DNA of 41,853 nucleotides, from NCBI RefSeq assembly GCF_900110265.1, contig NZ_FODB01000032.1:1-41853 (forward strand), written 5' to 3'. The DNA comes from Vreelandella aquamarina. GTDB lineage: Bacteria > Pseudomonadota > Gammaproteobacteria > Pseudomonadales > Halomonadaceae. The translations under genes were made by a program, and so were the position numbers. Under the pieces are notes generated by a model. It ran no database searches. It worked only from the letters and a program-made list of their open reading frames with translations, and had not been told where the DNA came from. Each line of letters starts with the position of its first letter. Within the stretch, counting starts at the first letter, position 1. Below are positions 11,257 to 17,307 of this stretch, piece by piece.

Positions 11257-11799
11257 ATGGCCCTACCTGATGCACTACTCGACCGGCTTCGCCGCGTAAA
11301 ACTGCTTGCGATTGATGTAGACGGTGTACTTACTGACGGCCGTCTCTATTTTCAGGCTGACGGTATCGAAATCAAAGCGTTTCACACCCAGGACGGTCAT
11401 GGCCTGAAGTTACTCAAGCGTGTCGGCATCCATGTGGCGCTGATTACCGGCCGTGATTCACCTATGGTGAGCCAGCGCGCTGCTGCCTTAGGAATCACTC
11501 ACGTGCACCAGGGCTGTGAAGACAAACTCACTACCCTGAGAGCGCTTTGTCAGCGGCTTGATATCACCTTAGAACAGGTCGCCTACTGTGGAGATGACCT
11601 ACCTGATCTTGCTCCGATCAAGCGCTCCGGTGTCGGTATTACGGTCCCCAATGCTCCGGACTACATGCACCCCCATGCCGACTGGATCACTGAACGCCTT
11701 GGCGGACACGGGGCTGTGCGTGAAATTTGCGATACGCTCCTAACGTCCCAAGGGCACTGGGATGCCGTACTCGATACGTATCTGCACGGACAGCCATAA
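11257..11799 (+). CDS. kdsC: 3-deoxy-D-manno-octulosonate 8-phosphate phosphatase
   Basis: KdsC removes phosphate from KDO 8-phosphate to give KDO. It belongs to the HAD superfamily: nucleophile D20 and acid/base D22 in AIDVDGVLTDG, Thr motif in ALITGRDS, and the third motif in YCGDDLPDL. I prefer the ATG at 11257 because GGAGG lies at 11248-11252, 4 nt upstream, giving 180 residues; in-frame starts at 11239 (ATG) or 11233 (TTG) are possible and would give 186 or 188. The protein is cytoplasmic and probably tetrameric like its relatives. The stop overlaps the lptC start as TAATG. Confidence 0.95.
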   Translation: MALPDALLDRLRRVKLLAIDVDGVLTDGRLYFQADGIEIKAFHTQDGHGLKLLKRVGIHVALITGRDSPMVSQRAAALGITHVHQGCEDKLTTLRALCQRLDITLEQVAYCGDDLPDLAPIKRSGVGITVPNAPDYMHPHADWITERLGGHGAVREICDTLLTSQGHWDAVLDTYLHGQP

Positions 11800-12371
11800 T
11801 GCGCTTTAGGGTAAGAAAACGGGTCTGGATCACGGCAATGGTCATCGCCCTAGGCGGCGTGCTGGTTTGGCTAGACCCTCGCGGCCCCCAGGAGACTGAG
11901 ATTGACTCTGAAGCTCGTGCCCAGGAACCTGGGCACGTATTAGAGAATGCCGAAATTACCCTATTTGGCGAAACAGGCACTATTCAGCAATCTCTGGTAA
12001 CCCCACGGCTGGTGCATACTCCGCAAACGGCAATGACTGACGTGTTGTCACCCCGTGCCACGCTGTTTGATAGCGAACAACGTGAGTGGCTCGCCACGGC
12101 GAACACTGGCACCCTCAATACTGAAACCCAAGCATTAACATTGGCAGGCTCCGCGCGGCTACTAGCGCCTGAAGAGGGGTGGCAGCTTGATAGCGAACTA
12201 TTAAACTACGACGGGACCACCCGGCATGCCTGGAGCGACACCCACGTAGTGTTGCAGCAGCCCCCTCAGCGTATGGAAGCCTCCCGAATGGATGTATGGC
12301 TGGATGACAGCCAAGTCCGTTTAACCAACAACGTGCGCGGCGTTCATCCGCCGGCCACCCGTTCCCCTTAG
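11799..12371 (+). CDS. lptC: LptC, inner-membrane LPS transport protein (C terminus abuts an inserted IscB element)
   Basis: Starting at ATG 11799 (TAATG overlap with kdsC), the product is 190 residues. One membrane anchor (about 7-23, VWITAMVIALGGVLVWL) precedes a periplasmic beta-jellyroll of LptC type (AEITLFGETGTIQQSLVTPRL region and LTLAGSARLLAPEEGWQL). LptC links LptB2FG to LptA in the trans-periplasmic LPS bridge. The frame ends at TAG 12369-12371, right where the IscB element begins, after the residues RGVHPPATRSP. Whether this is the native C terminus or one created or shortened by the insertion cannot be decided here. The C-terminal edge strand is what contacts LptA in E. coli. The core domain looks intact, so the gene is probably functional. 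Confidence 0.92.
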   Translation: MRFRVRKRVWITAMVIALGGVLVWLDPRGPQETEIDSEARAQEPGHVLENAEITLFGETGTIQQSLVTPRLVHTPQTAMTDVLSPRATLFDSEQREWLATANTGTLNTETQALTLAGSARLLAPEEGWQLDSELLNYDGTTRHAWSDTHVVLQQPPQRMEASRMDVWLDDSQVRLTNNVRGVHPPATRSP

Positions 12372-12375
12372 GAGT

Positions 12376-12660
12376 CGCGGTCAACTACCCCCGCCTGAAG
12401 GCGGGAGCTTGTGACAACAAGCCCGGTTGACCAGGGAGAGCGGTAGCCAACCCGCTACGTTGATAACAGGTCGCCAAGACTCACCCACGGATGCTTCCTC
12501 AGTCCGTGGCTCTGAAAGGTCAAGATCATGCTGGCGCAAGGTAAAACGCCGAAGATCTTGATCGCTGCCACAAGGCAGGAGCCGGTTATCGACATTCCCG
12601 AGGGGAGACGGGGCGCAAGCCCCGCGACACAAGGTCCGTAAGGGCATTGATTAGGAGGAA
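12376..12660 (+). ncRNA. Predicted omegaRNA of IscB, with guide at its 5' end
   Basis: This 285-nt gene-free stretch directly 5' of iscB is dense in hairpins on the plus strand: 12390-12395 with 12400-12405 (loop TGAA); 12407-12412 with 12417-12422 (GCTTGT/ACAAGC); 12439-12443 with 12452-12456; 12485-12491 with 12503-12509 (CCACGGA/TCCGTGG); 12520-12527 with 12554-12561 (TCAAGATC/GATCTTGA), containing 12533-12536 with 12547-12550; 12565-12569 with 12574-12578; and 12609-12613 with 12620-12624. In characterised IscB loci the omegaRNA lies exactly here and its first ~16 nt, copied from DNA outside the left end, is the guide. That places the guide approximately within 12355-12386, at or just past the lptC 3' end. 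The 5' boundary is inferred, not seen. Confidence 0.85.
12653..12658 (+). promoter_or_regulatory. Strong ribosome binding site of iscB at the omegaRNA 3' end
   Basis: AGGAGG is followed by 7 nt and the ATG at 12666, an optimal arrangement. It lies at the 3' edge of the predicted omegaRNA, so RNA folding or IscB binding could compete with ribosome access (inference). Confidence 0.8.
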
Positions 12661-12665
12661 ATCGC

Positions 12666-14036
12666 ATGGCGATTTTCGTACTGGACAAAAAGAAGCAGCC
12701 GCTGATGCCGTGCAGTGAAAAACGGGCTCGGTTGCTGCTACAGCGCGGGCGTGCCGTGGTGCATAAGCGCTATCCGTTCACGATCCGGCTGAAAGATCGA
12801 GTGGGCGGTAGCACGCAGCCACTAAGCCTGGGCATCGACCCTGGCAGCAAAACGACCGGGCTGGCGCTGATACGCGAACCGGACAGTCAGCAGCGGCATG
12901 TGCTGTGCCTGTTTGAACTAATCCATCGCGGTTATCAGATCAAAAAGGCATTACAACAACGCGCCGCCTTTCGGCGTCGCCGCCGCAGTGCCAACCTGCG
13001 TTACCGCGCCCCGCGCTTCAATAATCGCACCAAACCCAAGGGCTGGCTGGCACCGTCGCTGCAGCATCGCGTCGATACCGTCACGGCCTGGGTGAACCGG
13101 TTGAATCGTTTAGCGCCTGTAACCGCCATCAGCCAAGAGTTGGTGCGCTTTGATACGCAGAAGCTGGATAACCCCGAGATCAACGGCGTGGAGTACCAGC
13201 AAGGCACGCTGCTGGGCTACGAAGTACGCGAGTACCTGCTGGAAAAATGGGGCCGTGAATGTGCCTATTGCGGCACCGCCGATACGCCGCTGGAGATCGA
13301 GCATGTGATACCGCGCTCGCGGGGCGGCTCGAACCGCGTCAGTAATTTGACCCTAAGCTGCCACCCCTGCAACCAGAGCAAGGATGCGCTGTCACTGGTG
13401 GATTTTTTCGCCACTGACAAAGGCCTGAAAAAGCGCCTGAAAGCCAACGGCCACACCGCTAACGCTCGGCTTGAGCGTGTGCAGCGCCAGCTCAAGCAAC
13501 CGCTGCGCGATGCCAGCGCGATCAATGCCACGCGCTGGGCGCTGTTTAATGCGCTCAAAGCGACTAGCTTGCCGGTGGCTGTCGGCACCGGCGGTCGCAC
13601 CAAGTACAACCGCCAGCGACTGGGCATTCCTAAAACCCATGCTCTAGACGCGGCCTGTGTCGGTGCGTTCGACGCACTACATGCTTGGCAGGTGCCCACA
13701 TTAACCATCAAGGCGATGGGGCGTGGTAGCTATCAGCGCACCCGCTTAACGAAACACGGGTTTCCGCGTGGCTATCTGATGCGGCAGAAGCAGGTGCACG
13801 GCTTTCAAACCGGCGACATGGTGCGTGCGATGGTACCGACTGGCAAGAAAGCAGGTACCCATACGGGGCGTGTCGCGGTACGCAAAACCGGCAGTTTTAA
13901 CATCCAGACCGAACAGGGGGCCGTGCAAGGCATCTCGCACAAATACTGCACCCTCATCCAACGCGGTGATGGCTACGGCTATCACTTTACACCCTTCACC
14001 CACCTAACAGGAGGAGCGGGACAGGCGGTGGCGTAA
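12666..14036 (+). CDS. iscB: IscB, omegaRNA-guided HNH/RuvC DNA endonuclease
   Basis: The 456-residue product has the complete IscB architecture. The N-terminal PLMP domain contains QPLMPCS (11-17). RuvC-I has D58 in LGIDPGS. The arginine-rich bridge helix spans about 92-126 (AAFRRRRRSANLRYRAPRF). RuvC-II has E158 in ISQELVRFD. The HNH domain has zinc cysteines C199/C202 and C232/C235, E212-H213 in LEIEHVIPRSRGG, N227 and N236. RuvC-III has H325 and D328 in KTHALDAACVG. A C-terminal basic domain (about 345-445) is where IscBs read the target-adjacent motif. All catalytic residues are present and there is no frameshift, so activity is expected: guided cleavage of both DNA strands. It is the ancestor-type relative of Cas9 but lacks REC lobes. 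The HNH insertion separates it from TnpB/IsrB. It is co-directional with the lpt genes. Confidence 0.96.
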   Translation: MAIFVLDKKKQPLMPCSEKRARLLLQRGRAVVHKRYPFTIRLKDRVGGSTQPLSLGIDPGSKTTGLALIREPDSQQRHVLCLFELIHRGYQIKKALQQRAAFRRRRRSANLRYRAPRFNNRTKPKGWLAPSLQHRVDTVTAWVNRLNRLAPVTAISQELVRFDTQKLDNPEINGVEYQQGTLLGYEVREYLLEKWGRECAYCGTADTPLEIEHVIPRSRGGSNRVSNLTLSCHPCNQSKDALSLVDFFATDKGLKKRLKANGHTANARLERVQRQLKQPLRDASAINATRWALFNALKATSLPVAVGTGGRTKYNRQRLGIPKTHALDAACVGAFDALHAWQVPTLTIKAMGRGSYQRTRLTKHGFPRGYLMRQKQVHGFQTGDMVRAMVPTGKKAGTHTGRVAVRKTGSFNIQTEQGAVQGISHKYCTLIQRGDGYGYHFTPFTHLTGGAGQAVA

Positions 14037-14100
14037 CCCAGTCGCCCTGCGGGCGACGCGCTATCCCTCCCGGCGCTAAAGCACCGGGTTTCTCGCGCAA
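14037..14100 (+). mobile_element. Right end of the IscB element (two hairpins)
   Basis: After the iscB stop, a perfect 7-bp hairpin (GTCGCCC at 14041-14047 with GGGCGAC at 14051-14057, loop TGC) is followed by a second hairpin at 14069-14088 (CCCGG-C-GC, loop TAAA, GC-A-CCGGG, one C/A mismatch) and TTTCTCGC. Subterminal imperfect hairpins followed by a short linker are what TnpA recognises at IS200/IS605 right ends. The second hairpin with its trailing TTTCT could also act as a weak terminator upstream of lptA. The exact cleavage point, probably within about 14090-14100, is not determinable here. Confidence 0.75.
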
Positions 14101-14106
14101 AATCTG

Positions 14107-14610
14107 ATGAATGCTCTAATCCGCACTGCACTTCTTGCCCTAGCCGTGCCGCTTGTCACAATTGCACTGCCTGTAGCGGCACAAAACCAAGCGCCTATTC
14201 ATGTGGAGGCCGACCGGTTAGACCTTGACCAACGAGCAGGGACAGCCGTGTACACCGGTAACGTTGACATTCGCCAAGGCAATATGCAGCTACGCGGAGA
14301 GCGTGTCGAAATTCAGCGTAACAATGCTGGCGAGTTGTCTCGCGCCATCGCTACGGGCGAGCGTGCTTACTTGCGTAACCAAATTGAAGACCAAGAAACC
14401 CCTATAGAAGGCTGGGCGCGTCGGATTATTTATCACGTTTCCGAACGCCGGGTTGAGCTGATTGACCAAGCTGAGCTGACCCAGCAAGGAGATCACTTCC
14501 AAGGTGGACGTTTAGAGTACTTTATCGATCAAGAAGTAGTACAAGCACGCTCTGACGTTAGCGGCAGTGAAAATCAGCGTATTCGTATGACCCTTCAGCC
14601 CGAACAATAG
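14107..14610 (+). CDS. lptA: LptA (LptH), periplasmic LPS bridge protein
   Basis: The 167-residue product has a signal peptide (about 1-25, ending PVAAQ) and an OstA-like/LptA beta-jellyroll: [36 protein letters not shown] and [17 protein letters not shown] (segments of one fold). LptA polymerises or bridges between LptC and LptD to carry LPS across the periplasm and is essential in most relatives. The sequence TGATGA at 14105-14110 overlaps its start codon, consistent with a former TGATG or ATGA junction with lptC. No Shine-Dalgarno sequence is visible immediately upstream; the nearest purine-rich AGGAG is on the far side of the IscB element (12370-12374). Expression therefore has to cope with the insertion. 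Confidence 0.95.
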
Positions 14611-14621
14611 GAAGTGGCCAC

Positions 14622-15380
14622 GTGGCAGCATCAACATCCCCAGCCCCCACACCAGTAAAAACGCTCTACGCCCATCATTTAGCGAAGAGCTATAAGCGCC
14701 GCCGTGTGGTTAAAGATATTAATCTGGAAATCACTCAAGGTAGCGTGGTTGGGCTACTTGGCCCTAATGGCGCAGGTAAAACCACCTCGTTTTATATGAT
14801 TGTGGGGTTGGTCAAATTGGATGCGGGCAAAGTAGGCATTGACGACCTTGACCTCACTCATGCTCCTATGCATGAACGCGCCATGGCAGGGATTGGTTAT
14901 CTACCCCAGGAAGCTTCCATCTTCCGCAAGCTCTCCGTGGCTGACAACATTATGGCCATTTTAGAGACACGCAAAGAGCTTGATCGAAGCGCCCGGGAAG
15001 CACAACTTGAGTTACTACTTGAAGATTTTCACATCACTCATATACGCGACAACTTAGGCATGAGTCTTTCTGGGGGCGAACGCCGCCGTGTTGAAATCGC
15101 CCGCTCTTTGGCCACCGAACCGGCCTTTATCCTGCTGGATGAACCTTTTGCCGGGGTTGACCCGATTTCCGTTGGGGAAATTAAAGCTATCATTCGAGCG
15201 TTAAAGAAACGCCACATTGGTGTATTGATCACCGACCATAACGTTCGTGAAACGCTGGATATTTGTGATATTGCCTACATTGTTGGCGACGGTCACATCA
15301 TTGCCAGTGGAAACGCCCAGGAAATCCTCAACAACCAGAAGGTTCGAGATGTCTATTTAGGCGCCGATTTCCGCCTTTAA
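14622..15380 (+). CDS. lptB: LptB, LPS export ABC transporter ATPase
   Basis: The 252-residue product starts at GTG 14622, 11 nt after lptA; AGGAAG lies shortly upstream. Walker [10 protein letters not shown] is at 47-55, followed by a Q-loop (YLPQEASIF), the signature [15 protein letters not shown] and Walker [15 protein letters not shown]-loop ITDHN and the C-terminal [17 protein letters not shown] are typical of LptB. As a dimer it powers LptFG to extract LPS from the inner membrane. lptF and lptG are not in this window, as usual. The gene has about ten extra N-terminal residues (Ser/Pro/Thr-rich) compared with E. coli LptB. Confidence 0.97.
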
Positions 15381-16998: not shown

Positions 16999-17307
16999 AT
17001 GCAAGTAAACATCACTGGTCATCACGTTGAACTGACTGACGCCTTGCGCGACTACGTTAACGAAAAGCTGCAGCGCGTTGAACGCCACTACGACAACATT
17101 ACCACGGTGCAAGTGACCTTATCTGTTGAGAAGGAGCGCCAGCAAGCAGCCTGCACACTGCACGCTGCCGGTGCAGACCTTCACGCCGAAGCGCTTGATA
17201 ACGACATGTATGCCGCTATTGATGCGCTAGCAGACAAAATCGATCGTCAACTCGTTAAACATAAGGAAAAAGCACAAGCTCGCGCCCAGGGCGCTGGTGT
17301 GCGTTAA
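16999..17307 (+). CDS. hpf: Ribosome hibernation-promoting factor (HPF/YfiA family)
   Basis: The 102-residue product begins MQVNITGHHVELTDALRDYV, the classic start of HPF proteins, and continues with KLQRVERHYDNITTVQVTLSV and YAAIDALADKIDRQL before a basic tail. It is the short type without the C-terminal dimerisation domain of long HPF. It binds the 30S subunit in the channel used by mRNA and tRNA and promotes inactive 100S ribosomes in stationary phase. AAGGAG at 16986-16991 with 7 nt spacing makes the start secure. Position between rpoN and ptsN is conserved across gammaproteobacteria. Confidence 0.96.
   Translation: MQVNITGHHVELTDALRDYVNEKLQRVERHYDNITTVQVTLSVEKERQQAACTLHAAGADLHAEALDNDMYAAIDALADKIDRQLVKHKEKAQARAQGAGVR

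What the first reader, a model, noticed from the sequence alone, without database searches (positions are those of the whole stretch)
12372..14100. Complete IscB-omegaRNA element wedged into the essential lptC-lptA junction
An intact RNA-guided nuclease (all RuvC and HNH catalytic residues present) with its omegaRNA occupies the point where lptC and lptA are normally adjacent. Both genes belong to the LPS transport bridge, which is essential in most Gram-negatives. No TnpA is present, so this is a stand-alone nuclease module in a core operon. Its position may be selected: a host locus that cannot be lost protects the element.
Basis: partly seen in the sequence, partly recalled or inferred. Interest (0 to 1): 0.9.

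Follow-up and report, generated by a model that had tools for sequence, protein, structure and literature searches.

The report
RNA-guided element at lptA start codon
In a salt-loving bacterium, a mobile element carrying an RNA-guided DNA-cutting enzyme (IscB, a relative of Cas9) sits exactly between the ribosome-binding site and the start codon of the gene lptA, and most of its relatives examined sit at start-like codons of other genes; its guide RNA is predicted to recognise the very site it occupies, so that the enzyme would likely cut copies lacking the element and thereby keep it in place.

Summary
Confirmed: 12380-14106 is an intact IscB-omegaRNA (HEARO) element between lptC and lptA (115 bits; 451 bits). 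The lptA loci of all 80 relatives with a match are empty. Junctions are exact: left flank CCCCTTAGGAGTCGCG (lptC stop, lptA Shine-Dalgarno), right flank ATGA, the lptA start codon. Predicted guide: the lptA leader; predicted TAM: its start codon.

This is not peculiar to lptC-lptA. Of 47 copies with both ends in Halomonadaceae, 46 abut ATGA. Of these 46, 32 sit at start-like codons, against 17% of background ATGA or 33% with gene interiors excluded. Genes hit include alaS, argS, purD, rep, trkA and rsmE. Target-motif geometry plus tolerance explains the site better than an essential refuge.

'No TnpA' holds for the element; elsewhere the genome has a Y1 transposase whose right end resembles IscB right ends, so mobilisation in trans is plausible. 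Cleavage of empty sites and repair are inferred from IscB/TnpB biology. How lptA is translated without its Shine-Dalgarno is open. Outside the family the start-codon pattern is weak.

The parts
11799..12371 (+). lptC, intact; stop codon TAG at 12369-12371
   Evidence: Pfam LptC 93 bits and NCBIfam LptC_YrbK 105 bits; ATG at 11799
12364..12379 (+). predicted 16-nt guide CCCCTTAGGAGTCGCG: lptC stop plus native lptA leader with its Shine-Dalgarno AGGAG (12370-12374)
   Evidence: immediately 5' of HEARO model position 1; the like sequence abuts lptA's ATG in empty relatives, e.g. L004 with one mismatch
12380..12665 (+). left end of the element and omegaRNA scaffold (HEARO 12380-12609) up to the iscB start
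   Evidence: RF02033 115 bits; fold z-score -4.9 over 12364-12665; left end GTCAACTACC shared by copies
12666..14036 (+). iscB, 456 aa, RuvC and HNH motifs present
   Evidence: NF040563 451 bits; PDB IscB relatives; motif positions
14037..14106 (+). right end: hairpins 14041-14057 and 14069-14088, tail CGCGCAAAATCTG
   Evidence: sequence and fold; like tail in the 47 copies with intact right ends
14107..14110 (+). ATGA: predicted TAM/target motif and lptA start codon
   Evidence: right flank of 46 of 47 copies; fits the NNRR TAM of OgeuIscB (PMC9640706 passages)
14107..14610 (+). lptA, intact, now without its native Shine-Dalgarno
   Evidence: NCBIfam LptA 134 bits; only lptA match in the genome
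14622..15380 (+). lptB, directly downstream of lptA
   Evidence: NCBIfam LPS_export_lptB 394 bits

Best explanation
This is an intact IscB-omegaRNA insertion element (12380-14106) lying exactly between lptA's Shine-Dalgarno sequence and its ATG start codon; its predicted guide is the lptC-end/lptA-leader sequence it abuts, its predicted target motif (TAM) is the lptA start codon ATGA, and the nuclease would likely cut alleles that lack the element so that repair copies it back. Shown here: the anatomy, the exact junctions, the empty sites in relatives, the ATGA rule across copies and the excess at start-like codons. Inferred: that the omegaRNA is made, probably by read-through from the upstream operon because no sigma-70-like promoter was found in 12200-14300; that IscB cuts the empty site; that repair restores the element; and that a Y1 transposase encoded elsewhere moves it. 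The site is explained by target geometry: an ATGA motif with the element's strand fixed relative to it puts many insertions, in the same direction as the gene, directly before start codons, where the coding sequence is left intact. After insertion lptA would be read from the element's tail (CGCGCAAAATCTG), which lacks a Shine-Dalgarno; translation from that tail is inferred from the gene being single-copy, intact and presumably needed.
For: HEARO and IscB; empty lptC-lptA junctions in 80 of 80 relatives. Of 59 left ends, 47 have the right-end tail, found without any demand on the flank: 46 are followed by ATGA and one by ATCA, while left flanks are unrelated apart from the shared site L049/L050. 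Start-like: 32 of 46 against 456 of 2627 background ATGA (p 8e-15) and against 159 of 482 non-interior ATGA (p 4e-7). Shine-Dalgarno-like motif in the left flank: 22 of 46 against 193 of 2627. Empty sites of alaS and argS show clean insertion directly before the ATG. Guide: within 2 mismatches of 14-nt guide+ATGA the own genome has only its own interrupted site, while G022, G032 and G048 have as best hit the empty lptA start, one mismatch. 17 of 80 relatives have a one-mismatch 14-nt match next to ATGA and 24 of 80 at most two; 20 shuffled guides gave 0, and all 24 lie at the lptA start. Guide-directed retention is reported for the related TnpB (PMC11870625, passages).
Against: No cleavage, transcription or transposition was observed. 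None of the 80 relatives' empty sites matches the 14-nt guide perfectly, and in OgeuIscB mismatches at positions 1-14 abolish cutting (PMC9640706), so cutting is predicted only for near-identical strains, none of which was available. Hits at 3 mismatches are no commoner than for the reversed control pattern. The own genome's second copy is not a clean insertion: 20 bp between two ATGA motifs are missing relative to G020. G081 has 4 copies and no Y1 match, and G033 has 8 nearly identical copies with one weak match; right-end likeness was seen at 1 of 5 own Y1 loci tested, so the mover is uncertain. For alaS and argS the leader's anti-Shine-Dalgarno pairing barely changes (-3.3 to -2.9) and for rsmE it rises, so loss of a strong Shine-Dalgarno is not general. 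Outside the family a Shine-Dalgarno in the left flank was seen in 2 of 10 plausible HEARO starts.
Confidence: 0.74

Rival explanations
1. Refuge by essentiality: the element is at lptA because loss of an essential locus is lethal, so the position itself was selected.
For: Genes hit include several that I recall as essential in E. coli: lptA, alaS, argS and the octaprenyl diphosphate synthase gene ispB.
Against: Many hits are in genes that I recall as dispensable (rsmE, glcD, cysQ, mobB, nth, msrB, yicC), and 14 of 46 sites are not start-like. Precise excision would restore lptA, so essentiality alone does not protect the element. No essentiality statistic was computed.
Confidence: 0.12
2. Pure survivorship: the transposase inserts at any ATGA, and insertions at start codons simply do least harm, so there is no start preference and no special end function.
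For: ATGA is the shared motif, and insertion before a start codon leaves the coding sequence whole. It needs no further mechanism and is compatible with the main explanation. At alaS and argS the leader pairing hardly changes.
Against: After removing gene interiors, start-like sites are still in excess (32 of 46 against 33%), although for sites such as lptA losing the Shine-Dalgarno should be costly (-6.8 to -2.7 kcal/mol). The gene caller used for the background was simple.
Confidence: 0.45
3. Domesticated regulator or defence nuclease: IscB has been recruited by the host at this operon.
For: Nuclease-derived regulators are known for TnpB (recalled). The gene is intact and lies between lptC and lptA.
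Against: It is present at this site in 1 of the 81 genus genomes whose lptA was seen. The own genome has a second copy at another gene, and G033, G025 and G038 each gave more than ten IscB matches, fragments included. The nuclease motifs are present.
Confidence: 0.05
4. Inert relic: an old insertion that no longer makes RNA or cuts.
For: No near-identical copy in the genome (the two copies are 89% identical). No promoter-like site was found.
Against: Uninterrupted 456-aa frame, full-length HEARO (model positions 1-211), both ends intact, guide still close to relatives' sites.
Confidence: 0.2

Closest known systems
IscB-omegaRNA (OMEGA) elements of the IS200/IS605-like ISC group; OgeuIscB
   Same: HEARO RNA directly 5' of iscB, guide at the RNA's 5' end equal to the left flank, RuvC and HNH domains, a 3' TAM compatible with NNRR, no TnpA inside (Rfam and NCBIfam; PMC9640706 passages; PMC9755519 passages: few HEARO nucleases found with TnpA).
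   Different: Here the TAM is ATGA and doubles as the start codon of the downstream gene in most copies counted; none of the listings of my searches showed a paper that describes this placement.
HEARO RNA (Rfam RF02033; Weinberg et al. 2009)
   Same: Same RNA family, matched over its whole length.
   Different: The original paper is not held. I recall that it reports integration next to ATGA or GTGA; if so, the motif is already known and only the link to start codons and displaced ribosome-binding sites is added here.
TnpB of IS200/IS605 elements (transposon retention, plasmid gene drive)
   Same: Guide copied from the flank of the insertion; cuts copies lacking the element (PMC11870625, passages).
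   Different: TnpB is a Cas12 relative with its guide at the 3' end of the RNA; IscB is a Cas9 relative with a 5' guide (partly recalled). No cutting was tested here.
IStrons (group I intron plus insertion sequence)
   Same: A mobile element that makes insertion into genes tolerable (start of the abstract of PMC4227781 in a search listing).
   Different: IStrons restore the gene by RNA splicing; here no Rfam ribozyme was matched and tolerance would come from sparing the coding sequence at the start codon.

Membership tests
IscB RNA-guided nuclease | curated family model | tested here: met
   NF040563 451 bits, cut-off 175
IscB RNA-guided nuclease | split RuvC with inserted HNH and catalytic motifs | tested here: met
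   motifs from 56, 156, 211 and 321 within alignments to PDB IscB chains
IscB RNA-guided nuclease | omegaRNA (HEARO) directly upstream, guide at its 5' end | tested here: met
   RF02033 full length at 12380-12609, 115 bits; left flank close to empty sites. Transcription itself not tested
IscB RNA-guided nuclease | RNA-guided cleavage of dsDNA next to a TAM | not testable with these tools
   needs expression and cutting assay; ATGA is compatible with NNRR (PMC9640706)
IS200/IS605-like mobile element | insertion with empty sites in relatives, target motif, no target duplication | tested here: met
   80 of 80 relatives empty; ATGA in 46 of 47; flanks contiguous in the empty site
IS200/IS605-like mobile element | Y1 transposase TnpA in the element | tested here: not met
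   only iscB inside; 7 Y1_Tnp matches elsewhere in the genome, one with a related right end
IS200/IS605-like mobile element | transposition by TnpA in trans | not testable with these tools
   needs a transposition assay; G081 with 4 copies has no Y1 match

The most novel reading that the evidence does not exclude
A start-codon-seeking RNA-guided element: the start codon ATGA is its TAM and the host gene's leader, often with its ribosome-binding site, becomes its guide, while its right end serves as a replacement 5' leader, so that even essential genes (lptA, alaS, argS) keep being translated and come to depend on the element's own tail. The same geometry fixes the element in the direction of the gene, so the host operon transcribes both guide and nuclease.
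Probability: 0.35. Interest if true: 0.78.

Novelty: new member of a known kind. Interest (0 to 1): 0.52.

Why it matters
IscB is a likely ancestor of Cas9 and its natural role is little tested. A family that sits directly before start codons, with many copies in some genomes and empty sites in relatives, makes two questions directly testable: whether IscB retains its element by cutting empty alleles, and how a gene such as lptA is translated after its Shine-Dalgarno has been moved 1.7 kb away. It would also explain why an ATGA TAM is useful to such an element: it yields insertions that spare coding sequence and are transcribed by the host operon.

Tried and rejected
Essential-gene refuge: set aside because the same family sits at start-like codons of many other genes. 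Domesticated regulator: set aside because the site is occupied in one genome only and other copies exist. Upstream alternative start for lptA: the frame upstream of the ATG has a stop at 14077-14079 and no ATG, GTG or TTG in between (sequence). Terminator or promoter in the element: no promoter-like site (0.6 expected), and terminator-like sites only on the minus strand at chance level (2 against 2.4). A general start-codon rule outside the family: left flanks of 19 HEARO loci (of 33 matches listed, two of them the own genome's) were read; 10 begin with GTCA, and 2 of these 10 have a Shine-Dalgarno-like motif; their right flanks were not reached, so the rule is not established there. Of four distant loci whose right side I read, two fit: L198 (Sulfobacillus) has GGAGG before the left end and ATGA with an open frame after the right end, L196 (cyanobacterium) has ATGAAAACC after it but no clear Shine-Dalgarno before; L195 and L197 showed no such ATGA. 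Right-end likeness of TnpA elements: the first attempt looked only behind the ORF stop; it found likeness in five G038 loci but missed the own genome's case. The repeat over seven whole loci found the own C60 locus (score 50 against a maximum of 27 in 20 shuffles) and G038's L258, and none in L102-L105 or L249.

Rows dropped before counts: of 59 left ends, 12 had no intact right-end tail in the held DNA and were left out, one of them from a Chromatiaceae contig. The filter demanded ATGA or ATCA behind the tail; one search repeated the count without that demand and gave the same 46 of 47. L043 was missed by the left-end pattern; its flanks also show GGAG and ATGA. L049 and L050 are one shared site in two species and were both counted. 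The start-like test keeps sites with at least 60 open codons downstream and an in-frame stop within 60 codons upstream; L063, L151, L177 and L194 fail it only on the upstream limit. NCBIfam was run on 30 of 35 downstream frames other than lptA; L162, L177, L218, L232 and L233 were not run.

Full report
What is there. The window (contig C43 of a 3.5 Mb, 125-contig genome; its close IscB relatives in a named collection are Vreelandella and Halomonas contigs) holds lptC 11799-12371, an element 12380-14106, lptA 14107-14610 and lptB 14622-15380, all on the plus strand. The element consists of a full-length HEARO RNA (RF02033, 115 bits, the only Rfam match at the gathering threshold), an uninterrupted iscB (NF040563, 451 bits) with RuvC and HNH motifs that aligns with solved IscB chains, and a right end with two hairpins and the tail CGCGCAAAATCTG. 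The predicted RNA fold is more stable than all 100 shuffles (z -4.9).

Exact junctions. lptA was found in 81 of 82 genus genomes (the miss, G020, is 80% complete). I fetched the loci of the 80 relatives and found no element between lptC and lptA in any of them. In L004 the empty site runs ...CCCCCTAGGAGTCGCG-ATGAATGCC; in the window it runs ...CCCCTTAGGAGTCGCG-[element]-ATGAATGCT. The insertion therefore falls between lptA's Shine-Dalgarno (AGGAG) and its start codon, with no bases lost or duplicated and lptC left whole.

The family rule. The IscB protein finds a match in 16 of 82 genus genomes, some only fragments or weak HNH matches, HEARO in 11 of 82, and IscB at E below 1e-60 in 18 of 275 family genomes. 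G038 gave 20 scored IscB matches, fragments and contig-end pieces included. Among 59 left ends found in held DNA, 47 have an intact right-end tail; without any demand on what follows, 46 of these are followed by ATGA and one (L067) by ATCA, while left flanks are unrelated except for the shared site L049/L050. This is what a transposase target motif that doubles as TAM would give; OgeuIscB's NNRR TAM allows ATGA (PMC9640706, passages).

Start codons. With a start-like test (at least 60 open codons from the ATG, an in-frame stop within 60 codons upstream of it in the empty site), 32 of 46 sites qualify. The background is 456 of 2627 ATGA in 20 stretches of 20 kb from three genus genomes plus the window (p 8e-15). 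With simple gene calls and gene interiors excluded it is 159 of 482 in the 20 stretches (p 4e-7). A Shine-Dalgarno-like motif lies in the left flank of 22 of 46, against 193 of 2627; both features hold for 18 of 46, against 84 of 2627. NCBIfam was run on 30 of the 35 long downstream frames other than lptA: 24 matched a family, several below its curated cut-off or as pieces cut by the locus end, and 6 had no match at the chosen E-value. Families include argS, alaS, purD, rep, trkA, octaprenyl diphosphate synthase, rsmE, nth, glcD, cysQ, msrB, yicC, greB, mobB, pgl and modA; trmB (L063) and the ABC protein of L194 have frames that run on upstream and are not counted as start-like. For alaS and argS, relatives' empty sites (30 loci held for each, the closest nine printed) show clean insertion directly before the ATG.

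A warning case. The own genome's second copy (C44, 89% identical) is now at the ATG of rsmE, but in the close relative G020 the site reads TTTCCT-ATGACCAATAGACGACAACT-ATGAATTTG. The left end thus sits at one ATGA and the right end at the next, with 20 bp missing. Some start-codon junctions may therefore be secondary.

Guide. The 16 nt left of HEARO position 1 (12364-12379) are CCCCTTAGGAGTCGCG. Within two mismatches of the 14-nt guide plus ATGA the own genome has only its own interrupted site. In G022, G032 and G048 the best hit is the empty lptA start with one mismatch; of the other two genomes searched, G033 has hits at three mismatches only and G025 none; hits at three mismatches are no commoner than for the reversed control. 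Across the 80 loci, 17 have one mismatch, 24 have at most two and none has zero; 20 shuffled guides gave no locus with two or fewer, and all 24 sites are at the lptA start. OrufIscB works best with 14-15-nt guides (PMC13180657, passages), and OgeuIscB does not tolerate mismatches in positions 1-14. Cutting is therefore predicted for the empty allele of the same species, not shown, and is doubtful for these relatives.

Mobility. Nothing but iscB lies inside the element as a gene. The genome has seven Y1_Tnp matches; five of their loci were compared with IscB right ends, and one, on C60, has a right end 34 of 40 bases identical to that of IscB copy L065 (score 50 against a maximum of 27 in 20 shuffles; against the window's own right end the score is 33). 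Mobilisation in trans is plausible. Against a simple story: G081 has four copies and no Y1 match, and G033, a one-contig genome with eight copies 97.9-99.7% identical, has one weak match.

Consequence for lptA. lptA occurs once and is intact, yet its leader's pairing with the anti-Shine-Dalgarno falls from -6.8 to -2.7 kcal/mol. Over the 32 start-like sites the median falls from -5.6 to -2.9 and the start region is slightly more open (0.54 to 0.59), although the whole 80-nt stretch folds more stably (-15.7 to -18.4); for alaS and argS the pairing barely changes and for rsmE it rises. Translation from the element's tail is an inference. No sigma-70-like promoter was found in 12200-14300, so the omegaRNA, iscB and lptA may all rely on read-through; that too is untested.

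Literature. Few HEARO nucleases are found with TnpA (PMC9755519, passages). TnpB is reported to retain its element and drive it through plasmids (PMC11870625, passages). The listings of searches showed no paper on IscB at start codons; the library lacks Altae-Tran 2021, Weinberg 2009 and a further paper on transposon-encoded nucleases that I asked for. I recall that Weinberg et al. report ATGA or GTGA next to HEARO, so the motif may not be new.

Verdict. The element is a new member of the IscB/OMEGA kind. Its place at lptA follows from a family-wide rule (directly before ATGA, mostly start-like codons) rather than from a choice of essential loci.

Noticed in passing
L332/L057 (G000:C44) against L333 (G020): The own genome's second IscB copy has its left end at one ATGA and its right end at the next ATGA (rsmE start); the 20 bp between them in G020 are missing.
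   Followed up: partly
L048, L061, L067, L149, L150, L152, L153, L159 (G033): Eight IscB copies 97.9-99.7% identical in a one-contig genome with only one weak Y1 transposase match (29.5 bits): recent spread without an evident resident TnpA.
   Followed up: partly
G081: Four IscB copies and no Y1_Tnp match in a 99% complete genome.
   Followed up: no
L226 (G038:C67), 2724 onward: A HEARO RNA followed by a transposase (TnpA) fragment in place of IscB, about 2.3 kb behind lptA and upstream of frames that resemble the window's own at 17297 and 17824 (hpf, ptsN, rapZ by recall).
   Followed up: partly
L225 and L227 (G038:C104, C134): Two HEARO RNAs (131 and 128 bits) followed by a divergent IscB-like frame, one of 266 and one of 478 codons.
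   Followed up: no
L207, L232, L233: Internally deleted IscB elements (583-716 bp) that keep both ends and the ATGA right flank.
   Followed up: no
L049 (G055) and L050 (G058): The same insertion site in two species; in L050 the downstream frame stops after 15 codons, in L049 it is open for 151.
   Followed up: no
G390 (class search): 274 first-look HEARO candidates in one 3.7 Mb genome, only six scored: possibly a very high copy number.
   Followed up: no
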